Part shown: positions 21,983-47,171 of the stretch, piece by piece
How positions within the stretch are numbered: the first letter of the stretch is position 1
Layout: every line of letters starts with the position of its first letter
Source: Bacillus rhizoplanae
Lineage (GTDB): Bacteria > Bacillota > Bacilli > Bacillales > Bacillaceae_G
DNA: 51,854 bases
Assembly (NCBI RefSeq): GCF_917563915.1
Contig: NZ_CAKJTI010000024.1
Span: 1 to 51,854 of the forward strand
Direction: 5' to 3'
Position numbers and translations under genes: made by a program
The notes under the pieces: model-generated
Seen by the model: only the letters and a program-made list of their open reading frames with translations
Told to the model about the DNA's origin: nothing
The model's database searches: none

Positions 21983-22017
21983 AGAATGAACTGCCCTTTA
22001 CGTATAGGATGAAAACT

Positions 22018-22053
22018 CCCGCCACTTATCTCCTTCGGATCTTGAAGTGGGGG
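22018..22053 (-). ncRNA. Right-end hairpin, probable 3' part of the omega RNA
   Basis: On the minus strand CCCCCACTT pairs with AAGTGGCGGG (one bulge) about 18 bases after the tnpB stop. In this family the RNA guide scaffold overlaps the 3' end of tnpB and the guide lies just outside the element, here 22008 down to about 21991. Confidence 0.55.
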
Positions 22054-22070
22054 TTTCTCGTGTATCACCT

Positions 22071-23525
22071 TCAAGAGATGCTTAACACGAGTGGAGTTGA
22101 CACAGCTGCCTGATGGCACAACCCCTCTATTCCATCGGCAAACGCCTTTGGAACTGCTTTTTTTAAGATGTTATAGGAAGCATTCACATCTGCGTTCAGT
22201 AGTTTGTTCTCTTTCGTACGATACAAGCCACGTGTAATCCGTTTTCCACTAAATATAGGAATGTCTTCCTCACCGTAAGTGGGAATCGCATCATTGTCTA
22301 GAAAGGATGCCTTGCTTGTATACGATTCTTCCACGACTGGTACCATTATTCCCTGTCGATTCGCCTTATAAGTGATCATTTCAATAAGTAGATTATGTGG
22401 AATATGGCAGAAGGATTGATTCTGTTTTTTCCCCATCTCACTGTTTTGTTTCCATGCTATATTTTTCCCAATCACAATCACAGAAATCTCCTGTTGAATC
22501 GCCAGCTGGACAATATGATAACTCATTTTGTGAAAGAGATCTTTTATCTTGAGAAACCGTTTCTCATGAAGCCTCTCTAAGCGGTTTGATGTATGTGGTC
22601 CTTCTTTTGGTTCTTTTCCATGACGAAGAATACCAAGTAAACGAGCCCTTTGCTTGTTGTAATATTGATTGATGCTTTTGATCACATTGCCCTTTACTAA
22701 CACAGGTATGGTTCCTGTATTCGTTACGATGGTTGCAATGTTATGAATCCCTAAATCAATACTCATATAGCGATTGTTATCTACATGCTCAGGCGCTGGC
22801 TCAGATTTTCCTGTCACGATTTCCACTTTAAACTTCCCGTAAGCAGGAGAAACACGTACCTCTTTTAGATTTTCGATATATCCGAACAATTTACCGATAT
22901 TTAATTTTATGTTTGTTTTTGGAAAACGAATGTATTTATCTTGGAGTTTACACACTTGATTCGTGAAAACAATTTCTTTCATAGATGATTTCATATATTT
23001 GGGAATGCGAGGTCTGCCAGTAAAAGTGGAAGGATGTTTCTGATATGCTTTCATAGAAGTGAAGAATGACTTCCAATTTTGATACAACTTCTTCATGACT
23101 GCTTGATTCATTTGAGCTGGTAAATTCATATAATCTTGTTGTTTCATTGTTTTAAACAAACAATCTAGAAAGTTATAGGATAGAAACGATTTCTCTTTTG
23201 TCGGTAATGTAAACAAGTTACATTTCATTTCTTTTTGTTCTTTAACAGGTTTTGCTTTCTGTTTTTGCACACGTTTTTGGTACGCACGAAGTTGATTTTC
23301 GTTCATGATTTCAATCTGTGTTTGTAATGTATGAAGGACTTCTTGCTGAAGGGGCTGTAATGGTTGATTCGTACGTAAGGCCGTATACACTTGGCGAATA
23401 TAGAAGTTTGTTGTATTGTAGAGATTTTTTGCGTTTTGACACATTTTTAGGAAGTAAGAGTATAATTTATGACCTTTCTTGATCCAAATTTGATAGGTTG
23501 CATATTCTTTTTCTTTTGTCATCAT
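22071..23525 (-). CDS. tnpB: TnpB RNA-guided nuclease
   Basis: The 484-residue protein is a TnpB of the IS605 group. The RuvC-I Asp is in MSIDLGIHNIATI (about 257) and the RuvC-III Asp in LLNADVNASYN (about 446). The normal RuvC-II position reads VIVIGKNIAW, with no Glu; an alternative Glu pair occurs in VVEESYTSK (about 399-400). The usual CxxC zinc-finger cysteines between RuvC-II and III are missing. This matches the subgroup with a rearranged catalytic site. ATGATG follows GGAGGTGAAC; the first ATG at 23525 was chosen. Full length, no frameshift. Confidence 0.92.
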   Translation of the reverse strand: MMTKEKEYATYQIWIKKGHKLYSYFLKMCQNAKNLYNTTNFYIRQVYTALRTNQPLQPLQQEVLHTLQTQIEIMNENQLRAYQKRVQKQKAKPVKEQKEMKCNLFTLPTKEKSFLSYNFLDCLFKTMKQQDYMNLPAQMNQAVMKKLYQNWKSFFTSMKAYQKHPSTFTGRPRIPKYMKSSMKEIVFTNQVCKLQDKYIRFPKTNIKLNIGKLFGYIENLKEVRVSPAYGKFKVEIVTGKSEPAPEHVDNNRYMSIDLGIHNIATIVTNTGTIPVLVKGNVIKSINQYYNKQRARLLGILRHGKEPKEGPHTSNRLERLHEKRFLKIKDLFHKMSYHIVQLAIQQEISVIVIGKNIAWKQNSEMGKKQNQSFCHIPHNLLIEMITYKANRQGIMVPVVEESYTSKASFLDNDAIPTYGEEDIPIFSGKRITRGLYRTKENKLLNADVNASYNILKKAVPKAFADGIEGLCHQAAVSTPLVLSIS

Positions 23526-23625
23526 GTTCACCTCCTTCTTTCCTTCATGATACTACAAAGTAGTCAAAAGGAACATATATTCGCCATGCTGCGAAAATAT
23601 TTTTACAAATGCGATGGCAATTCAT

Positions 23626-23670
23626 CTCCACCTTAAACTGGGCTATGCCCTACACGTTTTGAAGATGGAG
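23626..23670. repeat. Left-end hairpin of the tnpB element
   Basis: CTCCAYCTT pairs with AAGGTGGAG-type sequence and an inner GGGC-ATA-GCCC stem caps it. Subterminal hairpins like this are recognised by Y1 transposases. Confidence 0.6.
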
Positions 23671-23692
23671 TTTTCTTGCCAATTTTTCGATA

Positions 23693-23740
23693 AAATAAAT
23701 GCATCCACTCACAATTGTTGAATGGATGCATTTATTTTAT
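23693..23740 (-). terminator. Strong terminator beside the element's left end
   Basis: AAAATAAATGCATCCA and TGGATGCATTTATTTT are perfect complements. The first bases coincide with the element's TTTAT boundary. Confidence 0.85.
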
Positions 23741-23751
23741 CCCTTTGCTTA

Positions 23752-23961
23752 TTAACGAAATAACATCACATAACCGCAACCACTGCAATGATAAGCAGTA
23801 ATTTCTTGAAATACAGGATAGTTCTCCTCATCTCGCTGTTCAATAAATACTTTTTCAAAACGATACATATTCGGCGCATACGCCCAATCTTGTTTTGTAC
23901 GAGCATATAAGGTGGACGAAAAAAATTCTTCTCCTCCGCAAACCATACAAGTCTTTTTCAA
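23752..23961 (-). CDS. Small zinc-ribbon protein
   Basis: The 69-residue protein has two CxxC pairs, C5-MV-C8 and a C-terminal HCSGCGYVML, enough to hold one zinc ion in a ribbon. Between them are conserved-looking aromatic and charged residues. It probably binds nucleic acid or a protein partner, which is inference. The start is TTG after GGAGGAG. Confidence 0.8.
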   Translation of the reverse strand: MKKTCMVCGGEEFFSSTLYARTKQDWAYAPNMYRFEKVFIEQRDEENYPVFQEITAYHCSGCGYVMLFR

Positions 23962-24011
23962 AATACTCTCCTCCCCAAGCCTGTCTTACCATAACTATAT
24001 GAGGGAGAGTA

Positions 24012-24047
24012 TAAAAAAAAGACCTTCTAAATATTAGAAAGTCTTTT
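24012..24047 (-). terminator. Terminator overlapping the 3' end of the single-TM gene
   Basis: AAAGACTTTC and GAAGGTCTTT pair around TAATATTTA, followed by eight T residues on the minus strand. The stem contains the gene's last codons. Confidence 0.8.
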
Positions 24048-24354
24048 CGGAGGAAAAGAGGAACATCCCCAATATTCCAATGGCACTATACGTCTTCTTT
24101 TTTCCTGTTTCTGTTTGAAAGGTTTGTTCTATTTTCATAAAGAATACGCCGTTTCGAACATCACTACTAACAAACTCTAGTTTCTCTTCTTTATTATCTT
24201 TTTGCTGCGTACAATTAAAACTCATTTCACTACACACAATTGAATATTCATCTGCTAAATGTTTTTGAAAGTCTGCTTCTTTCGGACAAGTTAATAATAA
24301 AATTGCTACAAATATAATACTACTAATACCTATTATTGTGAAAGTCTTCCCCAT
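24034..24354 (-). CDS. Membrane-anchored small protein of unknown function
   Basis: The 106-residue protein begins MGKTFTIIGISSIIFVAILLLT, one membrane helix or signal anchor, followed by a soluble domain with CSEMSFNC. The later part (NGVFFMKIEQTFQT ... AIGILGMFLF) looks beta-rich. It resembles DUF4359-type proteins, but weakly. The start at 24354 follows AAAGGAG. Confidence 0.65.
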   Translation of the reverse strand: MGKTFTIIGISSIIFVAILLLTCPKEADFQKHLADEYSIVCSEMSFNCTQQKDNKEEKLEFVSSDVRNGVFFMKIEQTFQTETGKKKTYSAIGILGMFLFSSEKTF

Positions 24355-24371
24355 TTTATCTCCTTTCAAAA

Positions 24372-24403
24372 AAGAAAGAAAACTTGACTCCTATCGTCAA
24401 GTT
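24372..24403 (-). terminator. Terminator of the following hypothetical gene
   Basis: AACTTGAC and GTCAAGTT pair over seven bases; the minus strand then reads TTCTTTCTTTTTT. Confidence 0.75.
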
Positions 24404-24406
24404 CCC

Positions 24407-25153
24407 TTAGTCCATTATCCACTGCCACTCTTGTTCTTTCTTATCAAAGATAAGCCATCCCGTTTTAGAAGCTTCACTTTTCAAATCTTCTAAACCATCT
24501 AGAACTTCATTTGTACTTTCATATGAGCCGATGACATAAACAGGAATCTCTAAACCACGCCTTGATTCTATTTTTCCTGCTAAGTCCAGGTATAAACCAT
24601 CTTCCATAAATGGCAAAAGTTCGAGAATAACCTCTTTTGAAATTGCCGGATAAATTTTCGATTTTTGAAAGAATGTGAATCGTTTTTTTCCAAATGAGCC
24701 AAGTTTATACGGAATTACCTTAGTAAGCATTCCAACAAAGTCCGGCATTCTTCGGTAATATACCTTATTGTACCAGCCATCATCATGAGAAAGATAAACG
24801 AATCTATTTTTCAAAAGTGGGAAAAAGGCCTTCCCAAGCGGTTCCTTTTTGTGTGCCAAATAGAGTAATTCTGCAATTTCTTTTGGCTCCAATTCATCCA
24901 AGTCATTTACATCATCAAAATCAACCCAGCAAAATTCTTCAAACTTCTCAACATCTGCTGCAATTAATTTATGTATACTCTCTTCCTCTGCATATTCAAA
25001 TAAAGTATGATAATGAAAATCCGCCCATTCAAAACTATGCTTTAAAAGCAGAACTTGATGAAGCGGCGAAGGAATATTGCTTGCAAATTCCTCAAACGTA
25101 ATTCCAGATGTGATAAAACAATGATTGCGACGATTACCATTAATATAAATCAT
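24407..25153 (-). CDS. Hypothetical soluble protein
   Basis: I do not recognise this 248-residue protein. It is rich in aromatic residues (FEWADFHYHTLFEYAEEES, FVYLSHDDGWYNKVYYRRMPDF) and has no membrane segment or signal peptide. The C-terminus (TGWLIFDKKEQEWQWIMD) looks like a closing beta strand. The start is unsure: ATG 25153 has GGAGG 19 bases upstream, too far, while the frame is open for 34 more codons. No neighbour suggests a role. Confidence 0.65.
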   Translation of the reverse strand: MIYINGNRRNHCFITSGITFEEFASNIPSPLHQVLLLKHSFEWADFHYHTLFEYAEEESIHKLIAADVEKFEEFCWVDFDDVNDLDELEPKEIAELLYLAHKKEPLGKAFFPLLKNRFVYLSHDDGWYNKVYYRRMPDFVGMLTKVIPYKLGSFGKKRFTFFQKSKIYPAISKEVILELLPFMEDGLYLDLAGKIESRRGLEIPVYVIGSYESTNEVLDGLEDLKSEASKTGWLIFDKKEQEWQWIMD

Positions 25154-25314
25154 ATTTTTGATTTGGTCAGATCCTCCAGACAAAGCACCTAGCCACCTTC
25201 GTTTTATATGTTTCAATACTATAGGATATTTTATCACGAAAATTTTTAGAAACATAGAAAAAACTATAAAAACTATTTACATTTTTATGAGTTTTATTAC
25301 ATCACCGTTACAAG

Positions 25315-25346
25315 AAAAAATGCCTGCTTATAAACAGGCATTTTTT
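25315..25346. terminator. Terminator of gerW
   Basis: AAAAAATGCCTG and CAGGCATTTTTT are perfect complements over a short loop. Confidence 0.85.
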
Positions 25347-25770
25347 ATGCAATTTCATCTGGATTTTGTGGATAATGCGAACTATCCTGTTTTTTATTAT
25401 TTTGAAAGATCGACTGAATCTTATCAATTGTTTGCGGTGCAAGTTCGATTACTTTCTCTGCCAAGTGCGTTGCATTTTGCAAATGAAGAATATTTACACC
25501 ATCCTTATTCACAACAAGAAAGGCAACCGGTGTAATAGAAACCCCACCAGCACTACCACCGCCAAATGCGGGATGACCTTGTGCCTTTTGTACGTCATTT
25601 GTGGAAAAATCTGATCCACCTGCACCAAAACCAAATGCTACTTTTGAAACAGTTAAAACAACACCGCCATCTGCTGTTTGAACAGGCTCACCGACAATTG
25701 TATTCACGTCAACCATTTCTTTTAAATTTTCCATAGCTGCTTTCATCAGCCCTTGAATTGGATGATCCAC
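25345..25770 (-). CDS. gerW: GerW-family sporulation protein (YtfJ)
   Basis: The 141-residue protein has the family features: HPIQGLMKAAMENLKEMVDVNTIVG, the Gly-rich GFGAGGSDF and FGGGSAGGVSITPVAFLVV. YtfJ is made in the forespore and GerW is needed for germination through certain receptors. The start is GTG nine bases after GGAGG. No other sporulation gene is adjacent. Confidence 0.93.
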   Translation of the reverse strand: MDHPIQGLMKAAMENLKEMVDVNTIVGEPVQTADGGVVLTVSKVAFGFGAGGSDFSTNDVQKAQGHPAFGGGSAGGVSITPVAFLVVNKDGVNILHLQNATHLAEKVIELAPQTIDKIQSIFQNNKKQDSSHYPQNPDEIA

Positions 25771-25905
25771 CGTTCATAACCTCCTTTTTCATATCCTTCC
25801 TAGTTTTTCCTAAACATTGTGAACTAAACATAAAATTTTTTATTGATTTCCAAAATTATAAGTACTAATATTTAGAAAATACAAATAAAAGGAGATTCAG
25901 CAAAA

Positions 25906-26691
25906 ATGATTCGAAAACTAACCGAACAAGACCATGAACAAGTACTTTCTTTTTTAAAGAAAGAAGCTGCATTCAACCTATTCTTAATTGGTGATATTGA
26001 GGCATTTGGATATGATCAGGATTTTCAAGAACTATGGGGACAGTTTACGATAGAAAATGAATTACAAGCTGTTCTATTGAGATTCCATGATTCCTTTATT
26101 GCCTATGCTGAGGCTTCATTCCAGCCAGAAGCGTTTATTGACCAATTTACTAACCATGACTACATTAAACTCTCTGGAAAATCAGAGGTCGTAGAACAGT
26201 TTGAAAATCTCGATAACCTAAACCTTGGTAAAAAACTGCAGACATACTTTTGTGAATGTACAACCGAGAAACAATTAGTAAAAGATATAAACAAAGAAAA
26301 CATAAAAATGGCAACGGTTGAAGATGTGGATCGTATTATACATTTACGAAAACAAATTACAGAATTTAAGATAGCAGACAGTGCAGGTAAACTCCTTCGC
26401 CAAGCAATTGAAACAAACACCGGACGGACATATTATATAGAAGAAAACGAAGAAATTATTGCGTGCGCGTCCACATCTGCAGAAAATTCATTATCTGCTA
26501 TGGTTATCGGTGTATGCACACATCCAAATCACCGCGGAAAAGGGTATGCTTCTCAAATCATAAGTAAAATGATTCAAGATTTTATCGCTGAAAGAAGAAC
26601 ACTTTGTTTATTTTACAGCAACCCTGCTGCTGGACGGATTTATAAACGTTTAGGATTTGAAGATATTGGAACTTGGACAATGTATCGCTAA
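25906..26691 (+). CDS. GNAT acetyltransferase with an N-terminal domain
   Basis: The 261-residue protein has a C-terminal GNAT domain with the acetyl-CoA loop CTHPNHRGKGYAS (about 205-217) and the closing YSNPAAGRIYKRLGFEDIG. The N-terminal 120 residues look like a degenerate second GNAT fold. This two-part layout is typical of Bacillus GNATs of unknown substrate. GGAG lies ten bases before the ATG. Confidence 0.88.
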   Translation: MIRKLTEQDHEQVLSFLKKEAAFNLFLIGDIEAFGYDQDFQELWGQFTIENELQAVLLRFHDSFIAYAEASFQPEAFIDQFTNHDYIKLSGKSEVVEQFENLDNLNLGKKLQTYFCECTTEKQLVKDINKENIKMATVEDVDRIIHLRKQITEFKIADSAGKLLRQAIETNTGRTYYIEENEEIIACASTSAENSLSAMVIGVCTHPNHRGKGYASQIISKMIQDFIAERRTLCLFYSNPAAGRIYKRLGFEDIGTWTMYR

Positions 26692-26694
26692 AGT

Positions 26695-26744
26695 GAAACT
26701 GCCATCAACATAGAACATTTCCATTTCCTATTGATGGCAGTTTC
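26695..26744. terminator. Bidirectional terminator
   Basis: GAAACTGCCATCAA pairs perfectly with TTGATGGCAGTTTC between convergent genes. Confidence 0.8.
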
Positions 26745-26757
26745 ATTTCATTAATAA

Positions 26758-27069
26758 TTAATCCTTCTTCTTATCCAATTCCACGTATTGAAAATGCTCT
26801 ACTGTCGGAAACGGCTCGTAAAAATGATGCAATCGTTTTTTCCATTCTTCATACTCACTTGATTTTCGAAACCCTTCCGTGTGATCTTCTAACGTCTCCC
26901 AGTTCACTAACAAAAGATATTTCCCTTTGGTTTCTATACATTTATGAAGCGTATGACCTTGGTAACCTTTCATAGAAGAAATAATGCTAGAAGCCTCTTG
27001 GAAGGCATTTTCAAATTCATTTTCCATTCCAAGCTTCACTTGGAGCATTGCTGCCTCTAATATCATCAT
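26758..27069 (-). CDS. Antibiotic biosynthesis monooxygenase (ABM) domain protein
   Basis: The 103-residue protein has the dimeric alpha-beta barrel pattern of ABM proteins: EAAMLQVKLGMENEFENAFQEA, then GYQGHTLHKCIETKGKYLLLVNWETLEDHTEGFRKS. It is the last gene of a run on the minus strand. ATGATG follows GGAG. The substrate is unknown; such proteins often oxidise aromatics or bind haem, but the haem-degrading Asn/Trp pattern cannot be confirmed. Confidence 0.85.
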   Translation of the reverse strand: MMILEAAMLQVKLGMENEFENAFQEASSIISSMKGYQGHTLHKCIETKGKYLLLVNWETLEDHTEGFRKSSEYEEWKKRLHHFYEPFPTVEHFQYVELDKKKD

Positions 27070-27077
27070 CTCATCTC

Positions 27078-27629
27078 CTAACTTATTATTACATCTCGAA
27101 CCCATTCTTCTCGTAATAAGCCCATTATCACTGTATCGTAGTATTTTCCATTTACATATACATCTTCACGGAGAACACCCTCCACTTGAAACCCGCACTT
27201 TTCATATGAACGAATTGCCCTTTCATTTCCACTCCATGTATCAAGTTGAATTTTTCTCATATTTAAGTTTAAAAATAAATATTTTACAAGTGTTTGTATA
27301 GCGTCTGTTCCAAACCCTTTTCCCCAATATTCTTTATCTCCTATCGTTAAGCCAATTACCGCCTTATGTGTCACCGCATCTATATCTCTATAGTCTGCTA
27401 TTCCGATATATTTTCCCTCTAACGTGTAAACAGCAAACACACATTCATCTTTTTTATTTAAGTTCCATACTTGTTCAAAAAAATGGTCTAACTGTTCCAT
27501 TGAAACATTTGTATAAAATGGTGAATTTCCTGTCGCCCAGTAACTTACTTCATCATCATTGCGCCATTTATAAAGAGAGTTCATGTTTTCTTTTGTAATA
27601 GCTCGTAATTCTACTAAATTCCCCTTCAA
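27078..27629 (-). CDS. GNAT acetyltransferase, RimJ/RimL type
   Basis: The 183-residue protein has the RimJ/RimL layout: LVELRAITKENMNSLYKWRND at the start, the acetyl-CoA loop KEYWGKGFGTDA and DTWSGNERAIRSYEKCGFQVEG. These enzymes acetylate protein N-termini or small molecules. The start is TTG nine bases after GGAGG; an ATG in between is out of frame. It ends nine bases before the ABM gene start. Confidence 0.9.
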   Translation of the reverse strand: MKGNLVELRAITKENMNSLYKWRNDDEVSYWATGNSPFYTNVSMEQLDHFFEQVWNLNKKDECVFAVYTLEGKYIGIADYRDIDAVTHKAVIGLTIGDKEYWGKGFGTDAIQTLVKYLFLNLNMRKIQLDTWSGNERAIRSYEKCGFQVEGVLREDVYVNGKYYDTVIMGLLREEWVRDVIIS

Positions 27630-27728
27630 TACATATATCCTCCTCAAATATAATCCTTTATCCCCATTCAAATGCTTTCCCATCATTATTTTTAGATTTA
27701 AAAGTATGATTCCATGTTTCTTTCAAAA

Positions 27729-28172
27729 TTACATACTCTCACGTTTTAAACTCATAACACTTTGCCTCTCAACGAATCCCATTTCTTTATACAACTCTTT
27801 CGCAAAATTCCCTGCAAATACGTTCAAACGAATTTCTGAGTAGCCTAGCTTATAGAGTTCATCAACTGCTGCTCTCATAAGCTGGCGTGAAAGACCTTGT
27901 CCACGATAAGAAGGAAACACATACAACTCATAAATAAAACCTATTTCTTCTCCAGAAAAATAGTCCTTATTGCTTCCAATCAATATCCATCCATTCAATA
28001 TATCATCATGTTTTATAACAAGATAGAATGCTCCTTTTTTTAAAAGAGGGACTGTAAGCTCTAGTACTTTCTCTTGGCTAAATTGACTCGTTTTCATGGT
28101 CCCTTCATATAAAGATTCGGCCGCATGAGCTAAAATTTTTTCCGTATCGCTTTCAGTTGCTCTTTGGATCAT
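27729..28172 (-). CDS. GNAT acetyltransferase
   Basis: The 147-residue protein has the acetyl-CoA loop PSYRGQGLSRQLM and LNVFAGNFAKELYKEMGFVE. It belongs to the common single-domain GNAT type. AAAGAGG lies eight bases before the ATG. It follows the next GNAT gene by 22 bases, so the two are co-transcribed. Confidence 0.9.
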   Translation of the reverse strand: MIQRATESDTEKILAHAAESLYEGTMKTSQFSQEKVLELTVPLLKKGAFYLVIKHDDILNGWILIGSNKDYFSGEEIGFIYELYVFPSYRGQGLSRQLMRAAVDELYKLGYSEIRLNVFAGNFAKELYKEMGFVERQSVMSLKRESM

Positions 28173-28194
28173 AAGAACCTCTTTCCCCCTCCTA

Positions 28195-28680
28195 TTAAAC
28201 ATGTAATACCATTCTTAATGTTTTCAGCATATATCCATCAAAGTCTTCTTCAAACGCATCTACCACTGCAAATCCTTTTGCAGTATAAAATGCTTTTCCG
28301 GTTTTATTCTCTGATTCTACGTTAATATATATCTTCTTGACACCTTCTAATGTTGTAATTCCTTTATGTAATAACGCTGTTCCCATACCACTTCCTTGGT
28401 ATTCAGGCAATAAGTAAATCGCCCCTAACTCCGTTTCACATTGATACTTTATCGGTGAAAAATTTGCAAATCCAACAACTTTTCCGTCTACTTCTCCTAT
28501 AAATAAATGTGAATGTTGTAAACGATGCTTCATCATGTCATGAGAATAAGCATGTTCTAAAAATTTTTCTTGCACTGGTATCGGAATAAGATCTTTATAT
28601 GTATCGTTCCAAGAAGTCTTGGCCACATATTGTACAGATGAGATATCTTCTTCTTTCATTTCACGGATGACAAAATTCAT
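28195..28680 (-). CDS. GNAT acetyltransferase
   Basis: The 161-residue protein has the acetyl-CoA loop PEYQGSGMGTALL and NVESENKTGKAFYTAKGFAVVD. WNDTYKDLIP near the N-terminus is frequent in the RimI-like GNAT group. Its ATG overlaps the stop of the 2H phosphoesterase gene as ATGA, with GGGGGAG upstream. Confidence 0.9.
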   Translation of the reverse strand: MNFVIREMKEEDISSVQYVAKTSWNDTYKDLIPIPVQEKFLEHAYSHDMMKHRLQHSHLFIGEVDGKVVGFANFSPIKYQCETELGAIYLLPEYQGSGMGTALLHKGITTLEGVKKIYINVESENKTGKAFYTAKGFAVVDAFEEDFDGYMLKTLRMVLHV

Positions 28681-29234
28681 AAAGACTCCCCCAACTTATA
28701 TTCTGCTAATGTGTTACACTTCACACACATTCCATCTTCATATACGACTTGGATTAATTTAATACAATCTACTGCCGCTCTCATCGCTTCAAAGCTCTCA
28801 CATACATGTTGAAAAATTTGTCCTAATTGTATTTTCGTTAGTCTACTTGCTACTGTACAATGTGGAACCCATTTATCTGGTACATAATAGGAATCTGCAT
28901 TATCTTGAAAAGGACTAAAATATTTATGATAGTTTGTATGAAACTGTTTCAGATTTTCTGTTATCGTTGGAGCATAAAACACCGTTCCATTTGCCGGGAA
29001 ACTCCCTACATGAGAAAATTCAATTTCAATAATATTCGTACGCTTTGAAAACTGACGCAGCTCTTGCTTGAATATTTTTACATCCAGCTGTTTATAATCT
29101 GCTAATGTAACATGTGGTTCCATTCCTTCAATGTTGTTTATATAAGATGACAAATCACTTTCATCCCACTTCTTTTTTATATATGTTCCAAATAGTTCAT
29201 CAAACGTAACAATTGCTGCGTACAAACTGCTCAT
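28677..29234 (-). CDS. 2H phosphoesterase (2'-5' RNA ligase family)
   Basis: The 185-residue protein has the two H-x-T motifs of the superfamily: PHVTLAD (about 39-45) and PHCTVAS (about 131-137). These enzymes open cyclic phosphodiesters or 2'-5' bonds in RNA or nucleotides. The ATG overlaps the upstream GNAT stop as ATGA and its own stop overlaps the next GNAT start in the same way. A TTG four codons later would have a better-spaced GGAG. Its place between two GNAT genes suggests a shared substrate, as inference. Confidence 0.88.
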   Translation of the reverse strand: MSSLYAAIVTFDELFGTYIKKKWDESDLSSYINNIEGMEPHVTLADYKQLDVKIFKQELRQFSKRTNIIEIEFSHVGSFPANGTVFYAPTITENLKQFHTNYHKYFSPFQDNADSYYVPDKWVPHCTVASRLTKIQLGQIFQHVCESFEAMRAAVDCIKLIQVVYEDGMCVKCNTLAEYKLGESL

Positions 29235-32627: not shown

Positions 32628-32668
32628 TTGAACTACCCCCACCTACCGCTTCGCGCTTGAGGTGGGGG
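32628..32668 (-). repeat. Orphan IS605/omega-RNA-like right-end hairpin
   Basis: CCCCCACCT (32636-32644) and AGGTGGGGG (32660-32668) pair perfectly around a CGC/GCG inner stem. Read on the minus strand it resembles the tnpB right end and is followed by TTCAA (32628-32632). No tnpB or left end is present, so it is a remnant or a stand-alone guide-RNA-like element. It could also end transcription of the SdpI-like gene. Confidence 0.5.
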
Positions 32669-39034: not shown

Positions 39035-39102
39035 ACGAGTGGATGGAACACCCATCTTTCTTTTAATTATCAAACAACACAATATAAAAAGGAGAATACA
39101 AT

Positions 39103-39525: not shown

Positions 39526-39541
39526 AATGGAGAGTGATTCT

Positions 39542-40414: not shown

Positions 40415-40440
40415 CCCGATAGTAACCGCTTTCATTTATA

Positions 40441-40475
40441 TAAAAAAGAAGAATGCATAACATTCTTCTTTTTTA
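40441..40475. terminator. Bidirectional terminator before alr
   Basis: AAAAAAGAAGAATG and CATTCTTCTTTTTT pair perfectly over CATAA between convergent genes. Confidence 0.9.
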
Positions 40476-41648
40476 CTTTCTTCTTAATGGATTTACAACT
40501 CCAACGATTTTACCATCTTCTTTGTATACACGTGGAATTCTTCGATCTAACATGCACGTTACTTCATAATTAATTGTCCCTAACGTATCAGCAATCTCTT
40601 CTACTGTAATCTCTTCATTACCTTGCTTACCATAGAAGACAACCTCATCCCCAACATGTACAGGCATCGCTTTTGTTACATCAAGCATAAGTTGATCCAT
40701 ACAAACACGGCCGATAATAGGTACTCTCACGCCATTAATTAACGCATATCCTTTACTTGATAATTGACGGCTAAATCCATCTGCATATCCGATTGGAATC
40801 GTAGCAATCCACTCATCACCTGTTGTAACATACGTATTTCCATAACTTACGCCTCTTCCTTTTTTCGCGTGTTTCACATGAGATACTTTTGACTTTAACG
40901 TTAAAATTGATTGAAGTGAAACTGCTTTATGGTCCACTTCTTTTGAAGGATACATTCCATATACCCCTATCCCAACACGAACCATGTTTTGAAATTCGTT
41001 ATCTAATTCCATAGTTCCTGCGCTATTGGAACTATGAATAAGCGGCAAATGAATCTCCATATCCTTTGCAGCATTTACAGCTTTCTTAAATAAATCTTTT
41101 TGCATCAACGTATATGTTTTATCTACTTCATCAGCAGTCGAGTAATGTGTAAACATTCCTTCTACTTTCACATGTTTCATTTCTTTCAATTCTTGTAGAA
41201 ATGTTGTCACTTCTTCTTCTTGTAAGCCAATTCTACTCATACCTGTATCAATTTTAATTTGAATACAGGCCTTCTTTTGCATACGTTCTGCTATATGATT
41301 GATATCTCTTAAATCTTCAATTCTATATACAGTCATCATAATATCGTATTCAATTGCATCTGCTACAGCTTCTTCCGGCGTATAACCTAAAATTAAAATT
41401 GGTACAGTAATTCCTGCTTCACGCAGTTCAATTCCTTCATCTACAAAAGCAACTGCAAAATGACTTACTCCAGCTTCAATCGCTACTTTTGCAATTTCAA
41501 TCGCACCATGACCATATCCATTTGCCTTTACCGCTGCCATCATTGCAATATTTTCATCGTTTACACGTTTTTTAAATTCTCTTACATTATGTTTTACAGT
41601 ATCTAAATTAATTTCAACAATTGTATTTCTTCCATATCTTGAAATCAT
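40473..41648 (-). CDS. alr: Alanine racemase
   Basis: The PLP enzyme makes D-alanine for the cell wall. The 391-residue protein has the cofactor lysine K41 in MAAVKANGYGHGA and the catalytic Tyr Y269 in GVSYGNTY, plus the C-terminal beta domain with GRVCMDQLMLDVT. Length is normal. AGGAG is about ten bases before the ATG. The B. cereus group has more than one alanine racemase; which one this is cannot be settled here. Confidence 0.95.
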   Translation of the reverse strand: MISRYGRNTIVEINLDTVKHNVREFKKRVNDENIAMMAAVKANGYGHGAIEIAKVAIEAGVSHFAVAFVDEGIELREAGITVPILILGYTPEEAVADAIEYDIMMTVYRIEDLRDINHIAERMQKKACIQIKIDTGMSRIGLQEEEVTTFLQELKEMKHVKVEGMFTHYSTADEVDKTYTLMQKDLFKKAVNAAKDMEIHLPLIHSSNSAGTMELDNEFQNMVRVGIGVYGMYPSKEVDHKAVSLQSILTLKSKVSHVKHAKKGRGVSYGNTYVTTGDEWIATIPIGYADGFSRQLSSKGYALINGVRVPIIGRVCMDQLMLDVTKAMPVHVGDEVVFYGKQGNEEITVEEIADTLGTINYEVTCMLDRRIPRVYKEDGKIVGVVNPLRRK

Positions 41649-41814
41649 TATTCTAACTCCTAACTCAATAATTCCATTCTATTTATCGTTCAATAGGACC
41701 TTTAACAATATAATACTTTTCATTTTTTTCGTCAAACTACAAGAATCTTCAGAATTTTGAATATGATAAAATACTCTTAAGACACTATTATAAACGGATG
41801 TGAGGAGAAACACA

Positions 41815-42276
41815 ATGTTTGTTCAAGCCACGCTGCACCAATTAAAATTTGGGATTGATTCTACAATACAGATGTTAGAACAATTTACTTACGATGAATT
41901 ACAACATCGCCCTATCAAAAACAAGCGATCCCTCTTTGAAATTTATACACATTTATCTCTTATTTGTTATGCCGATCTTCTTATTTTAAATGAAGCATCA
42001 AAAGAAGAACTAAATAAATTTTATTCACAACATACACCTCATACACTTGCAGAAGTTCAACAGACAATGAAAGAAGGTTTTCAACTTCTTGCTAAAACAT
42101 TTCAAGCATACTCCATAGCAGAGCTTGAAGAAACCACACATTCCTACTGGGGTGCTTCTTATTCTCGTTTTGAATGGTTACTTGAAATTGTTGCTCATTT
42201 TTATCATCATCGCGGGCAGCTACATACTTTATTGACAGAACATGTGAAAGACCCATTAATTCCTTTATTCGAATAA
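41815..42276 (+). CDS. DinB-family putative metal-dependent enzyme
   Basis: The 153-residue protein is a four-helix DinB fold with histidines placed as metal ligands: IYTHLSL (about 47) and the C-terminal VAHFYHHRGQL (about 132-140). DinB proteins include bacillithiol-dependent transferases. GAGGAG precedes the ATG at 41815. The function here is open. Confidence 0.85.
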   Translation: MFVQATLHQLKFGIDSTIQMLEQFTYDELQHRPIKNKRSLFEIYTHLSLICYADLLILNEASKEELNKFYSQHTPHTLAEVQQTMKEGFQLLAKTFQAYSIAELEETTHSYWGASYSRFEWLLEIVAHFYHHRGQLHTLLTEHVKDPLIPLFE

Positions 42277-42308
42277 AAACAAACTGCATATGCATTTCAA
42301 CAAAAAAC

Positions 42309-42343
42309 AGCAGCCAATCATGTTCATACAAGTGGCTGCTGTT
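42309..42343 (+). terminator. Terminator-like hairpin interrupted by a repeat
   Basis: AACAGCAGCCA and TGGCTGCTGTT pair perfectly, but the expected T tract is replaced by the boundary of the bcr1-like repeat at 42345. Confidence 0.6.
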
Positions 42344-42344
42344 G

Positions 42345-42434
42345 ATAAAGTGAAACTTCTATCAGTGTTTTTTTCATCCCCCACCTATCTTCTTCGCTTC
42401 TATCTCAATCTTGAGCTCCTTAATGCGGGATAAA
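42345..42434 (-). repeat. bcr1-like repeat, short form
   Basis: The element (42350-42429, 80 bp) lies between two TTTAT copies (ATAAA on the plus strand at 42345-42349 and 42430-42434). Read on the minus strand it starts CCCGC and ends GTTTCAC. The middle part of the full-length copy at 46914-47069 is missing, cut out between two GTGGGGGAT motifs. Confidence 0.75.
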
Positions 42435-42461
42435 GTACAACTTTCATTTGTCTTCAAGAAA

Positions 42462-42488
42462 TAGAAAAGGAACGGTTTTCCGTCCCTT
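42462..42488 (-). terminator. Terminator of the first spoIIP-like gene
   Basis: AAAGG-ACGG and CCGT-CCTTT pair around TTTT; the minus strand continues TTTTCTATTTC. Confidence 0.65.
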
Positions 42489-42508
42489 TCTATTGCTCTT
42501 ATTTTTCA

Positions 42509-43654
42509 TTAATAATTCACTTTCTCCGCATCCCAATAATACTTGCTAAACGCTTCTGCTAGTACATCAATAGAGTTATACAATTCTTCTAGCGTATTAT
42601 CAACACCACCAACTTCTACAAGTAGAGCATTGGAAGATAAATCTTGATTATATGTACCATCTCCTTTACTTTTGTCCTTTTTGAAAATCCCTCGGCTGAG
42701 TCCATAATAATGTTTATCCAAATATGAATTAATTTCGTTTGCGATTTTCATATTTTCTTCTCGTCCTTCATTTTCCATCCCGATAATGAAATAAAGTTTT
42801 GCGTATGACTTTCCATTAATCACTTTTGTTGTAACATTCTTACGCTGATCATCTCGGTGAATATCAATCGGAAATACGATTTGCTTATTTTGAGCTAACG
42901 CTTCTTTTACATATCCATGCGATGCTTTATAAGCTTGATACCACTTCATCTTTTTCTGCGCTAATAAGTCTCCCATGTTTGTCTTGTCATGTACAGCTGG
43001 AATTCCTTGTCCTTCTAATTGCTGTTTTAATCTTGTACCAAGGAGTGAAACATTTACATCTGGACTTGATGCTTCATCTGGAATTTTTGCTCCAGGTAAT
43101 AACGGTAAAAACGATTCCCAACTATGCGTATGATAAATAAATACGGCATTTTTCCCCTCTATAGCATTTCCTTTCTTTTGAACAGGATTATTCTTTTCTG
43201 CTTCCTGAACTTTTTCTTTAGCCACTTCGCGCTCTTTCGTAATTTCTTCTATCGGTACACTTGATTCATTTGGTATATTTGTATAATCGGTTCCTTCTCC
43301 AGCTACAAGAATGTCAGAATAATAGTTTGCCATTCCTGGGATTTCTTTTCCCATAAATGTTCGAATATCTTGCAAACGCATATCTGTTGTTAATGAAAAC
43401 AATAACGCTCCTACTGATTCTCGTTTCTTTGTTTGAAAATATTCAAAAGAAAAGTAATAATTTTCCATTTCAATCATTTGCATAAATCCTTGTATGGAAA
43501 TTTTTCCAAACCATTGACTCACATAATATGATTTCATTGTATGTAACATCGTTGTGACCAAAGATGCAGCAACTAAAATAAAAAATGCATAAGAACACAG
43601 CAAAATAATAATCTTCTTCCCATGCGTCTGAGAATGTATAAAATACTTTTTCAT
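42509..43654 (-). CDS. SpoIIP-like peptidoglycan hydrolase (paralogue 1)
   Basis: SpoIIP cuts septal peptidoglycan during engulfment. The 381-residue protein has a signal anchor (about 13-38) and the SpoIIP catalytic motifs: HTHSWE (175-180), DIHRD (264-268) and VEVGGVDNTLEE (346-357). All the metal and catalytic residues are present. The start is the ATG after GGGTGG. It is related to the gene at 47172-48326; neither is next to gpr, so both are probably extra copies beside the usual gpr-spoIIP locus. Confidence 0.92.
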   Translation of the reverse strand: MKKYFIHSQTHGKKIIILLCSYAFFILVAASLVTTMLHTMKSYYVSQWFGKISIQGFMQMIEMENYYFSFEYFQTKKRESVGALLFSLTTDMRLQDIRTFMGKEIPGMANYYSDILVAGEGTDYTNIPNESSVPIEEITKEREVAKEKVQEAEKNNPVQKKGNAIEGKNAVFIYHTHSWESFLPLLPGAKIPDEASSPDVNVSLLGTRLKQQLEGQGIPAVHDKTNMGDLLAQKKMKWYQAYKASHGYVKEALAQNKQIVFPIDIHRDDQRKNVTTKVINGKSYAKLYFIIGMENEGREENMKIANEINSYLDKHYYGLSRGIFKKDKSKGDGTYNQDLSSNALLVEVGGVDNTLEELYNSIDVLAEAFSKYYWDAEKVNY

Positions 43655-43673
43655 GGTACCACCCTTTCTATAC

Positions 43674-43702
43674 ATGGGTATGTACAAGCTTTATACAATA
43701 TA
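43674..43702 (-). promoter_or_regulatory. Sigma-E-like promoter of spoIIP paralogue 1
   Basis: On the minus strand TATATT is followed after 14 bases by CATACCCAT, close to sigma-E (ATATT, 14, CATACAAT). The spacer ends AGCTTGTA, as before paralogue 2. Confidence 0.6.
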
Positions 43703-43718
43703 CATTCTGATTACACTA

Positions 43719-43740
43719 CTATGTCCTGCACGTTTTGAAG
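43719..43740 (+). repeat. Remnant matching the tnpB element's left end
   Basis: Twenty of 22 bases match 23643-23664 (CTATG-CCT-CACGTTTTGAAG) from the left-end hairpin of the tnpB element, in the same orientation. No other part of an element is nearby. Confidence 0.45.
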
Positions 43741-43835
43741 CTTGAATATATACACCTACTATTTAATTCGTATATATATTTTCAGCTTCATTTCATATAT
43801 CCACTCCTCACATCTTCAACTTCAAATATATCCTC

Positions 43836-43866
43836 AAAAAAAAGAGAAATGGCAACCATTTCTCTT
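43836..43866 (-). terminator. Terminator of the SPFH gene
   Basis: AGAGAAATGG and CCATTTCTCT pair over CAA; the minus strand ends in a T run. Confidence 0.85.
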
Positions 43867-43874
43867 CCTCGTTT

Positions 43875-44834
43875 CTATTGTTCTTTTTTCGTATCTATAG
43901 AAGGCAGCTGTTTCTCTTTAAACAGCTCTCCAATTGCTCCTAAGCTTCCTAATGTTTCAACGGCGTTTGTTGGAAGGAACACTTTGTTTGCTGGTCCTTT
44001 TGCAATCTCAGTTAATGATTCAAATGACTGGTATGCAAGAACACGCTCATCAAGTCCTGCTTGACGCAGCATTTGAATACGATTTTGTTCTGCTTTCGCA
44101 ATTTCTTCAATTGCTTTTGCTTCCCCTTGCGCTTCTAGTTCTTTCGCTTGTCGTAAGCCTTCTGCCTCTCGAATACGCGCTTCTTTATCACCTTCAGCCA
44201 TTAAGATTTTACTTTGTTTTTCCCCTTCCGCGCGAAGCACTTTATCTTGTTTTGCTGCTTCTGCTTCGAGAATAATTGCACGTTTATTTCGTTCTGCCTT
44301 CATTTGTTTTTCCATCGCTGCTTGTATGTCTTTGGGTGGATTAATATCTACAACTTCAACACGTTCAATACGAACGCCCCATTTTTCTGTCGCCTCATCA
44401 AGCGCTAAACGAATTTCTGTTGAAATTTTCTCACGACCAGATAACGTTTCATCAAGCTCCATTTTCCCAATGATTTGTCGCATTGTTGCAGATGTAATAT
44501 TACGAACCCCGAATTCATAATTTGAAATACCATATGTCGCAAGCTCTGGGTCAACAATTTGATAGAAAATAATCGTATCAATCTCAACTTGTACGTTATC
44601 TTTTGTAATTACTTTTTGCGGTGGTACATTTGTTTGTTGGATGCGCAAATCATGATAAAGGCGTACACGATCGATAACCGGGATAACCATATTTAAACCC
44701 GGGTGCATAACACGCTGGAATTTACCTAAACGCTCTACAACACCTACTCTCTGCTGCGGAATAATTTTAATTGTTAATGCGATAAATACAATAACAATCA
44801 ATGCTAAAATAATCGATAATGTTAAACCAACCAT
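43875..44834 (-). CDS. SPFH/band-7 membrane protein (stomatin/QmcA type)
   Basis: The 319-residue protein has an N-terminal membrane anchor (VGLTLSIILALIVIVFIAL), the SPFH start IIPQQRVGVVERLGKFQRVMHPGLN, the conserved LDEATEKWGVRIERVEVVDINPP and a long Ala/Glu/Lys coiled coil (about 195-265). Such proteins scaffold membrane microdomains. The start overlaps the NfeD stop as TAATG; SPFH/NfeD pairs are a standard two-gene unit. Confidence 0.94.
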   Translation of the reverse strand: MVGLTLSIILALIVIVFIALTIKIIPQQRVGVVERLGKFQRVMHPGLNMVIPVIDRVRLYHDLRIQQTNVPPQKVITKDNVQVEIDTIIFYQIVDPELATYGISNYEFGVRNITSATMRQIIGKMELDETLSGREKISTEIRLALDEATEKWGVRIERVEVVDINPPKDIQAAMEKQMKAERNKRAIILEAEAAKQDKVLRAEGEKQSKILMAEGDKEARIREAEGLRQAKELEAQGEAKAIEEIAKAEQNRIQMLRQAGLDERVLAYQSFESLTEIAKGPANKVFLPTNAVETLGSLGAIGELFKEKQLPSIDTKKEQ

Positions 44835-45265
44835 TATAGTTCACACTCCCTTTTCACATGCACAACTGTGCTGCTCCTCTTTACAACAATAACGCTTTCT
44901 CCATCTAAAATTGGTTCATCTGAAACAGCAGTCCACATATCTCCATCTATTTTCACAATGCCATTCGCTTCATTTGTAATCGTTTGCACTATTATACCTT
45001 TTTTACCAACAAGTTGATCAACTGCATCTGTATACCCTTTTGCCTCCCGAAAATTCTTGGAAATACGTTTTGTAAAGATTGTCAAAACAAGACTGACAAT
45101 AGATGCTATTACAACTTGAAGTAGCAAAGAATTTGGTACAAATAGCGCAATTAGACCTCCGACCACTGCCCCTATTCCAAGCCATAATAAGTAAAATGTA
45201 ACAGTCAGCATCTCTGCAATAAATAAAAATCCGGCAATGACAAACCAAATTACCCATCCTGCCAT
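44834..45265 (-). CDS. NfeD-family membrane protein
   Basis: The 143-residue protein has three or four N-terminal membrane helices and a C-terminal OB fold (QLVGKKGIIVQTITNEANGIVKIDGDMWTAVSDEPI) typical of short NfeD proteins. It partners the SPFH protein in the membrane. ATG 45265 is six bases after GAGGG. A truncated bcr1-like repeat begins about 55 bases upstream, close to the promoter. Confidence 0.92.
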   Translation of the reverse strand: MAGWVIWFVIAGFLFIAEMLTVTFYLLWLGIGAVVGGLIALFVPNSLLLQVVIASIVSLVLTIFTKRISKNFREAKGYTDAVDQLVGKKGIIVQTITNEANGIVKIDGDMWTAVSDEPILDGESVIVVKRSSTVVHVKRECEL

Positions 45266-45318
45266 GTGCAACCCTCGCTTCCATTCTATTTTTTATATGT
45301 ATATGAGAGAAAGAAAAC

Positions 45319-45430
45319 TTTATCCCGCATTAACGGGCAGTAAGCCCCCCACCTCAAGATTGAGGGCAGCGAAGAAGATAGGTGGGGGGCTTACTGCCCG
45401 TAAAAGTCCGATTGGTTCAACTAACCGCTA
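45319..45430 (+). repeat. bcr1-like repeat, 3'-truncated copy
   Basis: After TTTAT (45319-45323) the copy starts CCCGC and matches the long copy through GGTTCAACTAACC (near 45426). It then diverges; the last ~45 bases and the second TTTAT are missing. Its central stem of 21 bp (GGGCAGTAAG-CCCCCCACCT and complement) is perfect. Confidence 0.75.
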
Positions 45431-45726
45431 AAAAGCTGAGGCGCCCATCCACAAATAATAAAATCTTACTATCACTAGAAAGTATGTAGTATCAGATCTA
45501 TTAGATGAAGAATATACTAAAATGATATATTAATATATTCTTTATCGCGCATGACAAACCCTCTCAAAAAATGACAAAAAATATTTTCTCACAAATGAGA
45601 CCATGAAATAAATAACTTAGATAAGAAACAATTACATTATCTAAGCAAACATTTCCTACGTATTTAGCTAATTCGGTCATATATACGTCTCGATGTTGTT
45701 TACCACTTACGTATACGTAACAGTGA

Positions 45727-45767
45727 GAAAGCGATGTTTCTTAGATAGAAACATCGCTTTCTTGTTT
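45727..45767 (+). terminator. Strong hairpin with T-rich tail, no gene upstream
   Basis: GAAAGCGATGTTTC (45727-45740) and GAAACATCGCTTTC (45748-45761) pair perfectly over TTAGATA, then TTGTTT. It looks like a terminator, but no plus-strand gene ends here. It may end a small RNA. Confidence 0.55.
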
Positions 45768-45831
45768 ACGCATATACTTTTTTCTTAATATAACATCGGC
45801 ACTCCACCATTCTCCCCTTTATCATCATTAC

Positions 45832-45941
45832 TTTATTTTGCTACTTGTGAGCAGTAAAACTCCCACCTCAAGATTTTGAGAAAACAAAGAAGATAAGTGC
45901 ACGATGAAGAAAAAACCTCACTGATAGGAAGTTCACTTTAT
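45832..45941 (+). repeat. bcr1-like repeat, short diverged form
   Basis: TTTAT at 45832-45836 and 45937-45941 flank about 100 bp that keeps CCCACCTCAAGAT, AAGAAGATA, GATGAA and CACTGATAG-GAAGTTCAC. It lacks the same central part as the short copy at 42345. Its right end forms the stop codon of the vanY-type gene. Confidence 0.65.
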
Positions 45942-46673
45942 AACTTCTTCTAAAGTGAACTGATTTTCATATAAATATGTCGCATATGGATTTCCAACAT
46001 AGCGCACATGCCACGGTTCATACGTATATCCTGTTATCGCTTCTTTTTCTTTCTCATAACGGATAATAAAACCAAATTTATGAGCATTTTCAGCAAGCCA
46101 TTTTCCTTCCCTCGTGTCTCCAAATAAAGGTTCTAATTGAAAATTTGCAGATTGTGATGTAATGTCGATTGCTAATCCTGTTTGATGTTCACTTGTACCA
46201 GGAACTGCACTAGACATCGCTGTTTTTGCTTCCCCATCTTGTTTTTTATACATCGTATTTAATGCTTTTTGCCGTTCAAATGAACGAAATGCAGAAACAG
46301 CAAATAAAGAGATTTTTTCACTATTCGCTTGTTGAAACATGCGTTCTAATGCTGTAGCAGCTTCTTTACGCATTTTCTTTTTTTCATTATCGCCTTCATA
46401 TAGAAAACGAACTTTTGGTATTACTAAATCTTGTGGTTCATACAAATCTGGCAAACGCCTTTTCTTATTCACAAGGACAAGAGTTGAGTCTGGGTTGTTA
46501 ACAACCGCAAGCCCTCCTTCTATTTTTGCAATTGTTTCTTGTACCTTCGGAAAAACAACGTTTCCTTGCGCTTCTATCGCTTGTTTTTCCTTATGCTCTA
46601 TATATTGCAGCATTGCAATTGCAATCACTCCAATGACAATCGCTATACTAAACAACATCCATTTTCTCTTCAT
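45933..46673 (-). CDS. VanY/LdcB-type carboxypeptidase (peptidase M15)
   Basis: The enzyme trims the C-terminal D-Ala (or L,D bond) of cell-wall peptides outside the membrane. The 246-residue protein has a signal anchor (about 6-23) and the M15B zinc site: SEHQTGLAID with H163 and D170, and EPWHVRY with H222. VSAFRSFERQ fits the VanY family. It is complete. The last bases come from a bcr1-like repeat, which supplies TGA right after the final Lys codon. AAAGGA lies before the ATG. Confidence 0.92.
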   Translation of the reverse strand: MKRKWMLFSIAIVIGVIAIAMLQYIEHKEKQAIEAQGNVVFPKVQETIAKIEGGLAVVNNPDSTLVLVNKKRRLPDLYEPQDLVIPKVRFLYEGDNEKKKMRKEAATALERMFQQANSEKISLFAVSAFRSFERQKALNTMYKKQDGEAKTAMSSAVPGTSEHQTGLAIDITSQSANFQLEPLFGDTREGKWLAENAHKFGFIIRYEKEKEAITGYTYEPWHVRYVGNPYATYLYENQFTLEEVIK

Positions 46674-47171
46674 ATAACATCCTTTTATTCTAATAATTTT
46701 TCTATACAATACTCATCAACTTCCGTTACGCTCAATAACAGTTAATTCTAAACATCACATACCATATATTTTTTCCCATTCTCTCATCCATTTAAACAAT
46801 TTGCTCCAACTTATTTCAAAATTTTAGAGATGCGTTTGCTTCTTATACTGCAATTTACCTACTCATTACGGTTACATTGTTTACATAATAAAATTATTTA
46901 CAAGAGCCATTTTATAAAGTGAAACTTCCATCAGTGGGGTTTTTTCATCCCCCACTGATGGTTAGTTGAACCAATCGGGCTTTTACGGGCAGTTATCCCC
47001 CACCTATCTTCTTCGCTTTTCTCTGAATCTTGAGGTGGGGGTCTTACTGCCCACGAATAGCGGGATAAATGAACATTCGCTACTATTTTTCTAAATCCCT
47101 TTTCCTTTTTCATAAGATAAAGAGACAAATTTCGATACAAAGCAAATAGCGTAAGCAATGTTTGCTTACGC
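46674..47171. other. Spacer containing a full bcr1-like repeat
   Basis: 46674-46913 shows nothing beyond AT-rich sequence. The repeat occupies 46914-47069. AGCGTAAGCA/TGCTTACGCT (about 47147-47171) is the terminator of spoIIP paralogue 2. Confidence 0.6.
46914..47069 (-). repeat. bcr1 repeat, full-length copy
   Basis: The 146-bp element (46919-47064) lies between TTTAT copies. On the minus strand it starts CCCGC, has a hairpin GGGCAGT-A-CCCCCACCT against AGGTGGGGG-ACTGCCC, then GGTTCAACTAACC, then a terminal hairpin CCATCAGTGGGG/CCCCACTGATGG and GTTTCAC. Length near 155 bp and TTTAT flanks match the bcr1 repeat of the B. cereus group as I remember it. Confidence 0.85.

What the first reader, a model, noticed from the sequence alone, without database searches (positions are those of the whole stretch)
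22009..47069. bcr1 repeats and the tnpB element share one hairpin core
The tnpB right-end hairpin (22018-22053), the orphan hairpin (32636-32668) and the central hairpin of the bcr1-like copies (42345, 45319, 45832, 46914) align as CCCCCAC(C/T)TCAAG, a CGAAG-containing loop, then (A/G)GTGG-GGG. The tnpB element's left end and the bcr1 copies all abut TTTAT. I infer that bcr1 may be a miniature IS200/IS605 derivative carrying an omega-RNA-like fold, and that its flanking TTTAT pair could be Y1-transposase cleavage motifs (TAM outside, matching motif inside) and not a target duplication.
Basis: partly seen in the sequence, partly recalled or inferred. Interest (0 to 1): 0.75.

Follow-up and report, generated by a model that had tools for sequence, protein, structure and literature searches.

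The report
Hairpin-ended mini-transposons inserted beside TTTAT
The bcr1 repeats look like tiny, gene-less cousins of a family of jumping genes that move as single-stranded DNA; similar elements occur in many other bacilli, and the enzyme that moves them has not been identified.

Summary
The hairpins and most TTTAT flanks exist. No omega-RNA link was found. bcr1-like elements match in 127 of 193 genomes of the family of Bacillus sp. EB600. Anatomy is IS200/IS605-like: two covarying subterminal hairpins, TAA at each 5' foot, TTTAT outside the left end and as the last five bases of the right end. Empty sites argue against target duplication: one filled site reads GTTAT..TTTAT where two relatives hold a single GTTAT; a second agrees in one of four relatives. 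Orientation follows the replication fork: 25 of 26 sites in one genome, 10 of 10 beside a gene opposing the fork; 63 of 87 in another. That second genome has about 100 short copies, recent insertions and no detectable Y1 transposase. Best reading: PATE-like elements moved as single strands by an unidentified trans-acting enzyme.

The parts
46914..47064 (-). full-length bcr1 copy (left end at 47064, right end at 46914)
   Evidence: R1 92.8 bits over 46978-47069; R2 87.8 bits over 46914-46978
47065..47069 (-). TTTAT target pentamer outside the left end of that copy
   Evidence: sequence; role inferred from empty sites of related elements in other genomes
46987..47052 (-). H1, left-end imperfect hairpin
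   Evidence: R1 alignment; covariation on A3
46962..46979 (-). conserved central box CCCGATTGGTTCAACTAA, ending in the TAA before H2
   Evidence: alignment A3
46928..46961 (-). H2, right-end hairpin
   Evidence: R2 alignment; covariation on A3
46914..46918 (-). TTTAT, last five bases of the element (right-end motif)
45319..45428 (+). truncated bcr1 copy: TTTAT, H1 and central box, no H2
   Evidence: R1 92.1 bits over 45319-45408
45832..45941 (+). degenerate bcr1 copy with TTTAT at both ends
   Evidence: R1 24.4 bits
42345..42434 (-). bcr1 copy with deletions in both hairpins, TTTAT at both ends
   Evidence: R1 20.1 bits
32623..32690 (-). orphan single-hairpin element between two TTTAT
   Evidence: R1 16.6 bits, E 0.038
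22009..23689 (-). tnpB-only (IS1341-type) element; ends inferred from Gracilibacillus copies
   Evidence: Pfam OrfB_IS605 and Cas12f1-like_TNB
23690..23694 (-). TTTAT abutting the tnpB element's left end
23610..23689 (-). tnpB left end with hairpin, the part that matches the bcr1 left half
   Evidence: R1 32.3 bits, E 2.5e-6, model positions 1-92 of 92 including TTTAT
22071..23531 (-). tnpB coding sequence, 486 codons
22017..22053 (-). tnpB right-end hairpin named in the finding
   Evidence: R1 11.9 bits, E 0.7, not significant
22009..22013 (-). TTCAT, right-end motif of the tnpB element

Best explanation
bcr1 is a PATE-like, non-autonomous element of the IS200/IS605 kind. Its left hairpin (H1) and right hairpin (H2), each with TAA just 5' of the foot, mark a strand for cutting after the TTTAT outside the left end and after the TTTAT that forms the last five bases of the right end. 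The element is inserted 3' of TTTAT (or a variant such as GTTAT) in single-stranded DNA of the lagging-strand template, so no target is duplicated and each copy supplies a fresh TTTAT for tandem insertion. The enzyme acts in trans. Shown by sequence: the ends, the covarying hairpins, an un-duplicated target, the fork orientation, the left-end match to the tnpB element. Inferred: the single-strand mechanism, the guide role of TAA, and a Y1/HUH-type enzyme, whose gene was not found.
For: Anatomy: in A3 (22 copies) TAA before H1 and the terminal TTTAT are invariant, TAA before H2 holds in 21 of 22, and 11 of 32 predicted pairs show compensatory double changes. By a loose pattern TAA lies near the H1 foot in 119 and before H2 in 115 of 121 left/right pairings. 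No terminal inverted repeat in the one copy compared. Empty sites: L183 filled GTTAT|element..TTTAT|AGAG; clean empties read GTTATAGAG in G070 and G041, GTTCTAGAG in G061; L203 filled CTTAT|..TTTAT|, CTTAT in 1 of 4 relatives. 118 distinct copies: 94 TTTAT at both ends, 14 left variant only, 7 right variant only, 3 both. Fork orientation: 25 of 26 sites in 280 kb of G172, 10 of 10 where a flanking gene opposes the fork, 3 of 3 where both do; G042 61-63 of 87 for assumed termini 1.9-2.49 Mb, p 3.5e-5 at mid-chromosome; G037 28-29 of 40; a DnaA-like frame (recognised by eye) starts at base 1 of all three contigs. Left end resembles IS200/IS605 left ends: window tnpB 32.3 bits; a second tnpB element abutting TTTAT in G172 (L325, 19.1 bits, E 0.045 in 280 kb; TnpB by Pfam); IS605-type left ends L340 19.8, L342 15.2, L170 18.3 bits, assigned by eye and individually weak. 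Architecture as described in passages of PMC6006769 and PMC7290912.
Against: No Y1_Tnp (PF01797) at E<=1e-6 in 29 of 193 genomes, 18 of them with bcr1-like DNA; G042 has bcr1 at 7 of 8 tested sites that are empty in G070, and both lack Y1. Among 52 Y1 loci none encloses a Y1 gene between a lone left and a lone right end; in L158 separate bcr1-like units lie on both sides of a broken Y1 gene, and L171 has a left end without a right end in the locus, both unresolved. The bcr1 right end does not match the tnpB right end. Presumed guides differ between bcr1 (TAA) and the tnpB elements (by eye). L181's variant left pentamer arose after insertion and L192 is unclear. Two of the three copies with variants at both ends match (CTTAT/CTTAT: L077, L102), which a duplication would also give. 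Left-only versus right-only variants, 14 to 7, is no strong skew. The fork bias is partial in G042 and G037.
Confidence: 0.75

Rival explanations
1. bcr1 is a classical MITE moved by a DDE transposase, with TTTAT as a 5-bp target duplication.
For: TTTAT at both ends in 94 of 118 copies and two copies with CTTAT at both ends; earlier papers call bcr1 MITE-like (passages in PMC3446304, PMC3733652).
Against: L183 and, more weakly, L203: variant target kept on the left, TTTAT on the right; no terminal inverted repeats in the copy compared; fork orientation.
Confidence: 0.05
2. bcr1 moves as a double-stranded circle by a tyrosine or serine recombinase crossing over in TTTAT.
For: [quoted passage not shown] no duplication at L183; tandem arrays; no association with Y1.
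Against: Does not predict fork orientation independent of gene direction, the TAA-plus-hairpin ends, or the left-end match to an IS200/IS605 element. It predicts target variants at the right end as often as the left; not tested.
Confidence: 0.13
3. bcr1 is an omega-RNA-like or otherwise RNA-level element serving TnpB.
For: Conserved covarying hairpins; bcr1 copies are transcribed (PMC3446304, passage).
Against: The tnpB right-end hairpin is the weak match (E 0.7); the right-end model misses it; no Rfam family reached its gathering score on the bcr1 or tnpB regions.
Confidence: 0.04
4. A version of the best explanation, not exclusive with it: a Y1 TnpA of an IS605-type element moves bcr1, and the Y1-free genomes merely lost it or the plasmid that carried it.
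For: Left-end match to tnpB elements and weaker matches to IS605 left ends; 164 of 193 genomes carry Y1; of the 11 genomes that are also, five carry Y1.
Against: No association between Y1 and bcr1 presence (109 of 164 versus 18 of 29); insertions in G042 absent from G070, with no Y1 in either.
Confidence: 0.45

Closest known systems
PATEs (palindrome-associated elements related to IS605; Haloquadratum, PMC3119063, passages read)
   Same: No terminal inverted repeats, near-terminal palindromes like those of IS605-type transposons, no coding capacity, strain-specific insertions; there too the authors found mobility hard to reconcile with disrupted IS200-type genes.
   Different: bcr1 has a conserved central box and internal modules, matches tnpB elements at the left end only, and shows fork orientation.
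bcr1 / group A repeats of the B. cereus group (PMC6542083, PMC8725734; passages)
   Different: Similar elements occur outside that group in these data; the right TTTAT is element-borne; an IS200/IS605 architecture is proposed.
IS200/IS605 insertion sequences (PMC6006769, PMC7290912; passages)
   Same: Insertion 3' of a tetra- or pentanucleotide, no duplication, hairpin at each end with a short guide at the 5' foot, final right-end bases as cleavage site, lagging-strand preference.
   Different: No transposase gene inside; none detectable in several host genomes.
REP elements with TnpAREP (PMC6006769, passages)
   Same: Many chromosomal copies, guide plus hairpin, trans-acting enzyme proposed.
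   Different: bcr1 is a two-hairpin unit with fixed ends; four long Y1 genes inspected have their own, different flanking repeats (by eye).

Membership tests
PATE / IS200-IS605-type non-autonomous element | no terminal inverted repeats | tested here: met
   4 to 8 of 25 positions identical between ends; one copy examined
PATE / IS200-IS605-type non-autonomous element | no target-site duplication; insertion 3' of a fixed pentamer | tested here: met
   8 loci against relatives; decisive at L183, supportive at L203, uninformative or unclear at the other six
PATE / IS200-IS605-type non-autonomous element | subterminal palindromes at both ends | tested here: met
   11 of 32 pairs with double compensatory change over 22 copies
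PATE / IS200-IS605-type non-autonomous element | short guide immediately 5' of each hairpin foot | tested here: inconclusive
   TAA conserved in position; pairing with TTTAT not tested
PATE / IS200-IS605-type non-autonomous element | ends resemble those of an IS200/IS605 element | tested here: inconclusive
   left end met: 32.3 bits to the window tnpB left end, 19.1 to a second tnpB left end; right end not matched
PATE / IS200-IS605-type non-autonomous element | lagging-strand orientation bias | tested here: met
   25 of 26, 61-63 of 87, 28-29 of 40 sites
PATE / IS200-IS605-type non-autonomous element | mobilised by a Y1 TnpA | tested here: inconclusive
   no association with Y1 presence; G042 and G070 lack it
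omega-RNA of TnpB | homology to the tnpB right-end hairpin | tested here: not met
   E 0.7
omega-RNA of TnpB | binding by TnpB | not testable with these tools
   needs an experiment
DDE-type MITE | terminal inverted repeats and target duplication | tested here: not met

The most novel reading that the evidence does not exclude
bcr1-like elements are moved as single-stranded DNA at replication forks by a chromosomal enzyme outside the known Y1_Tnp family: IS200/IS605-type ends served by a different kind of nuclease, still unnamed, across much of a family of bacilli.
Probability: 0.27. Interest if true: 0.85.

Novelty: new variant of a known kind. Interest (0 to 1): 0.66.

Why it matters
In the passages seen, bcr1 is a mobile-looking repeat of uncertain mechanism, specific to the B. 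cereus group. If this reading holds, its mechanism class is set, its range is far wider, and the open question becomes sharp and testable: which enzyme moves IS200/IS605-type ends in cells where no Y1 transposase can be found? It would also give a natural record of lagging-strand exposure in many genomes.

Tried and rejected
Bracketing: looked for a Y1 gene enclosed by bcr1 ends in 52 Y1 loci; none clear, with L158 and L171 unresolved. Autonomous copy in G042: from 105 right-end rows and 132 left-end rows I kept 98 left ends (34 rows dropped: antisense echoes and a few weak ones); 97 paired, each with its nearest right end within 470 bp, leaving 1 left and 8 right ends unpaired. Of these nine, seven show the other end within about 350 bp (six by model, L351 by eye); L352 and L353 show none in about 4 kb upstream. 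Only 150 candidates per model were scored, so weak copies may be missed. Viral contigs with two exact patterns, and phages with one element: no match; plasmids: 4 records, then 3 and 2 with other queries. Gene direction as cause of orientation: rejected for G172; not separable in the G042/G037 loci (3 versus 4). Terminator preference: slight (median upstream fold -4.7 at 109 sites versus -3.9 at 442 controls, p 0.0007).
Full report
What was asked.

Source. No whole genome is held for the window. That it is B. cereus-group-like is inference from bcr1. No B. cereus-group record appears among the 40 loci or the 4 plasmid records, so comparisons rest on other bacilli, many without names. Window 45000-47400 matched 22 bcr1-rich genomes; in the 150 or so rows listed (more were not) the matches are at the repeats, apart from one at 69% identity in G036, so those genomes do not look like close relatives of the window.

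The observation. The hairpins and most TTTAT flanks are real, with the exceptions in the observation check. TnpB is confirmed by Pfam.

Range. The window's full copy found relatives in Bacillus sp. EB600 (25 matches), Gracilibacillus massiliensis (19), G. kekensis (8) and Anoxybacillus calidus (17), and none in 3 other genomes; one locus's genome was not held. In the family of EB600, 127 of 193 genomes match, with only four candidates scored per genome. Passages of PMC6542083 and PMC8725734 call bcr elements restricted or specific to the B. cereus group. The primary bcr1 papers of 2004 and 2011 are not held; the 2007 one was not looked up.

Anatomy. Consensus, left to right: TTTAT | CCCGC-ATTAA, H1, TAAAAG, CCCGATTGGTTCAACTAA, H2, AAGTTTCACTTTAT |. 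In 22 aligned copies 11 of 32 predicted pairs show compensatory double changes. Longer copies carry modules at one place inside the central box. Units of tandem arrays share single TTTAT junctions.

Relation to tnpB. Models were built from 21 left halves (R1) and 24 right halves (R2). In the window R1 hits the tnpB left end at 32.3 bits over all 92 positions, the orphan at 16.6 and the tnpB right end at 11.9 (E 0.7). In 280 kb of G172 two hits lay away from copies already known: L317 (21.8 bits), which reads as a degenerate bcr1, and L325 (19.1 bits), which is the left end of another tnpB element that abuts TTTAT; next came hits of about 12 bits and echoes overlapping known copies. In 40 tnpB loci the one non-bcr1 hit was the L005 right-end hairpin, 14.6 bits, E 0.69; the left ends of the other tnpB relatives were not hit. 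In 52 Y1 loci it was L170 (18.3 bits); L167 and L085 are bcr1-like by profile. In 20 IS605 tnpA loci it was L340 (19.8) and L342 (15.2). R2 lists no tnpB right end in the window and only bcr1-like L158 in 30 Y1/IS605 loci. So left ends are alike and right ends are not. Common origin and convergence on one enzyme both remain possible.

No target duplication. Eight G042 sites were compared with relatives. L183: filled GTTAT..TTTAT; G070 and G041 read a single GTTAT, G061 GTTCT; G053 and G068 carry other DNA there. L203: filled CTTAT..TTTAT; G044 reads CTTAT, G070 CTTAA, the other two differ more. L181: relatives read TTTAT, TATAT or TCTAT, so its GTTAT arose later. L192: unclear. L177, L186, L196: empties consistent with one TTTAT-like copy, with G041 carrying other DNA or a related element at two of them. 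L201: filled in G041, G070 and G053, empty in three others. Seven of eight sites are empty in G070. Across 118 distinct copies, 94 have TTTAT at both ends, 14 a left variant only, 7 a right variant only, 3 both, two of these matching.

Orientation. A DnaA-like frame, recognised by eye, starts the contigs of G037, G042, G155, G012 and G172, not of G026. In G172, 25 of 26 sites run left-to-right with the fork, including 10 of 10 with at least one flanking gene opposing the fork and 3 of 3 with both. G042: 61 to 63 of 87 depending on the assumed terminus. G037: 28 to 29 of 40. Passages of PMC6006769 and PMC7290912 describe lagging-strand preference for IS200/IS605; the latter also reports no strand preference for its own 22 copies.

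The missing enzyme. PF01797 was found at E<=1e-6 in 164 of 193 genomes. Without it: 29, of which 18 carry bcr1-like DNA; with it: 109 of 164 (nine unlisted genomes were identified by elimination). Of the 17 genomes, eleven (G042 included) are in that set: six lack Y1 (G041, G042, G050, G053, G068, G070), five have it (G044, G051, G058, G061, G065); the other six (G200-G205) were not examined. G042 yields 105 right ends and 97 paired copies, none over about 470 bp; two solitary right ends remain unexplained. Completeness of these genomes is not told, though the G042 copies lie on one 4.98-Mb contig.

Judgement. A single-strand, IS200/IS605-like mechanism is well supported (0.75). Whether a Y1 enzyme does it is open. 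Literature: the listings, and passages read in six of the bcr1 papers listed, showed none linking bcr1 to IS200/IS605; the remaining listed papers were not opened and the main bcr1 papers could not be read.

Noticed in passing
window 26688-26751: Palindrome scoring 20.1 bits with the bcr1 right-end model; ends AGTTTCACTTTA like bcr1 but has a different stem.
   Followed up: no
window 42509-43687 and 47172-48326: Two SpoIIP paralogues lie beside bcr1 copies 42345 and 46914.
   Followed up: no
L325 3529-4862: A tnpB element in G172 whose left end abuts TTTAT and matches the bcr1 left-end model.
   Followed up: partly
L092 and L096: Short Y1-like proteins in Bacillus sp. EB600 that by eye lack a recognisable HUH motif.
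   Followed up: no
L086, L094, L095, L097: Long (254-286 aa open frame) Y1 genes flanked by their own GGGAC-type inverted repeats, unlike bcr1.
   Followed up: partly
L304, L305, L288, L293: Composite bcr1 elements with an extra internal module, in three of them carrying an inverted copy of the central box.
   Followed up: partly
L352 4301-4359 and L353 3965-4023: Solitary bcr1-type right ends in G042 with no left end found in about 4 kb upstream.
   Followed up: partly
L158 (G073): Separate bcr1-like units on both sides of a broken Y1 gene.
   Followed up: no
L054 (CP079755.1): A Klebsiella-labelled plasmid record holds part of a bcr1-like element; possibly mislabelled or contaminated sequence.
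   Followed up: no
L011, L014-L022, L025, L032, L035: TnpB relatives at about 40-45% identity in Lokiarchaeota and Helarchaeota contigs.
   Followed up: no
window 2199-2414 (-): T-box leader.
   Followed up: no
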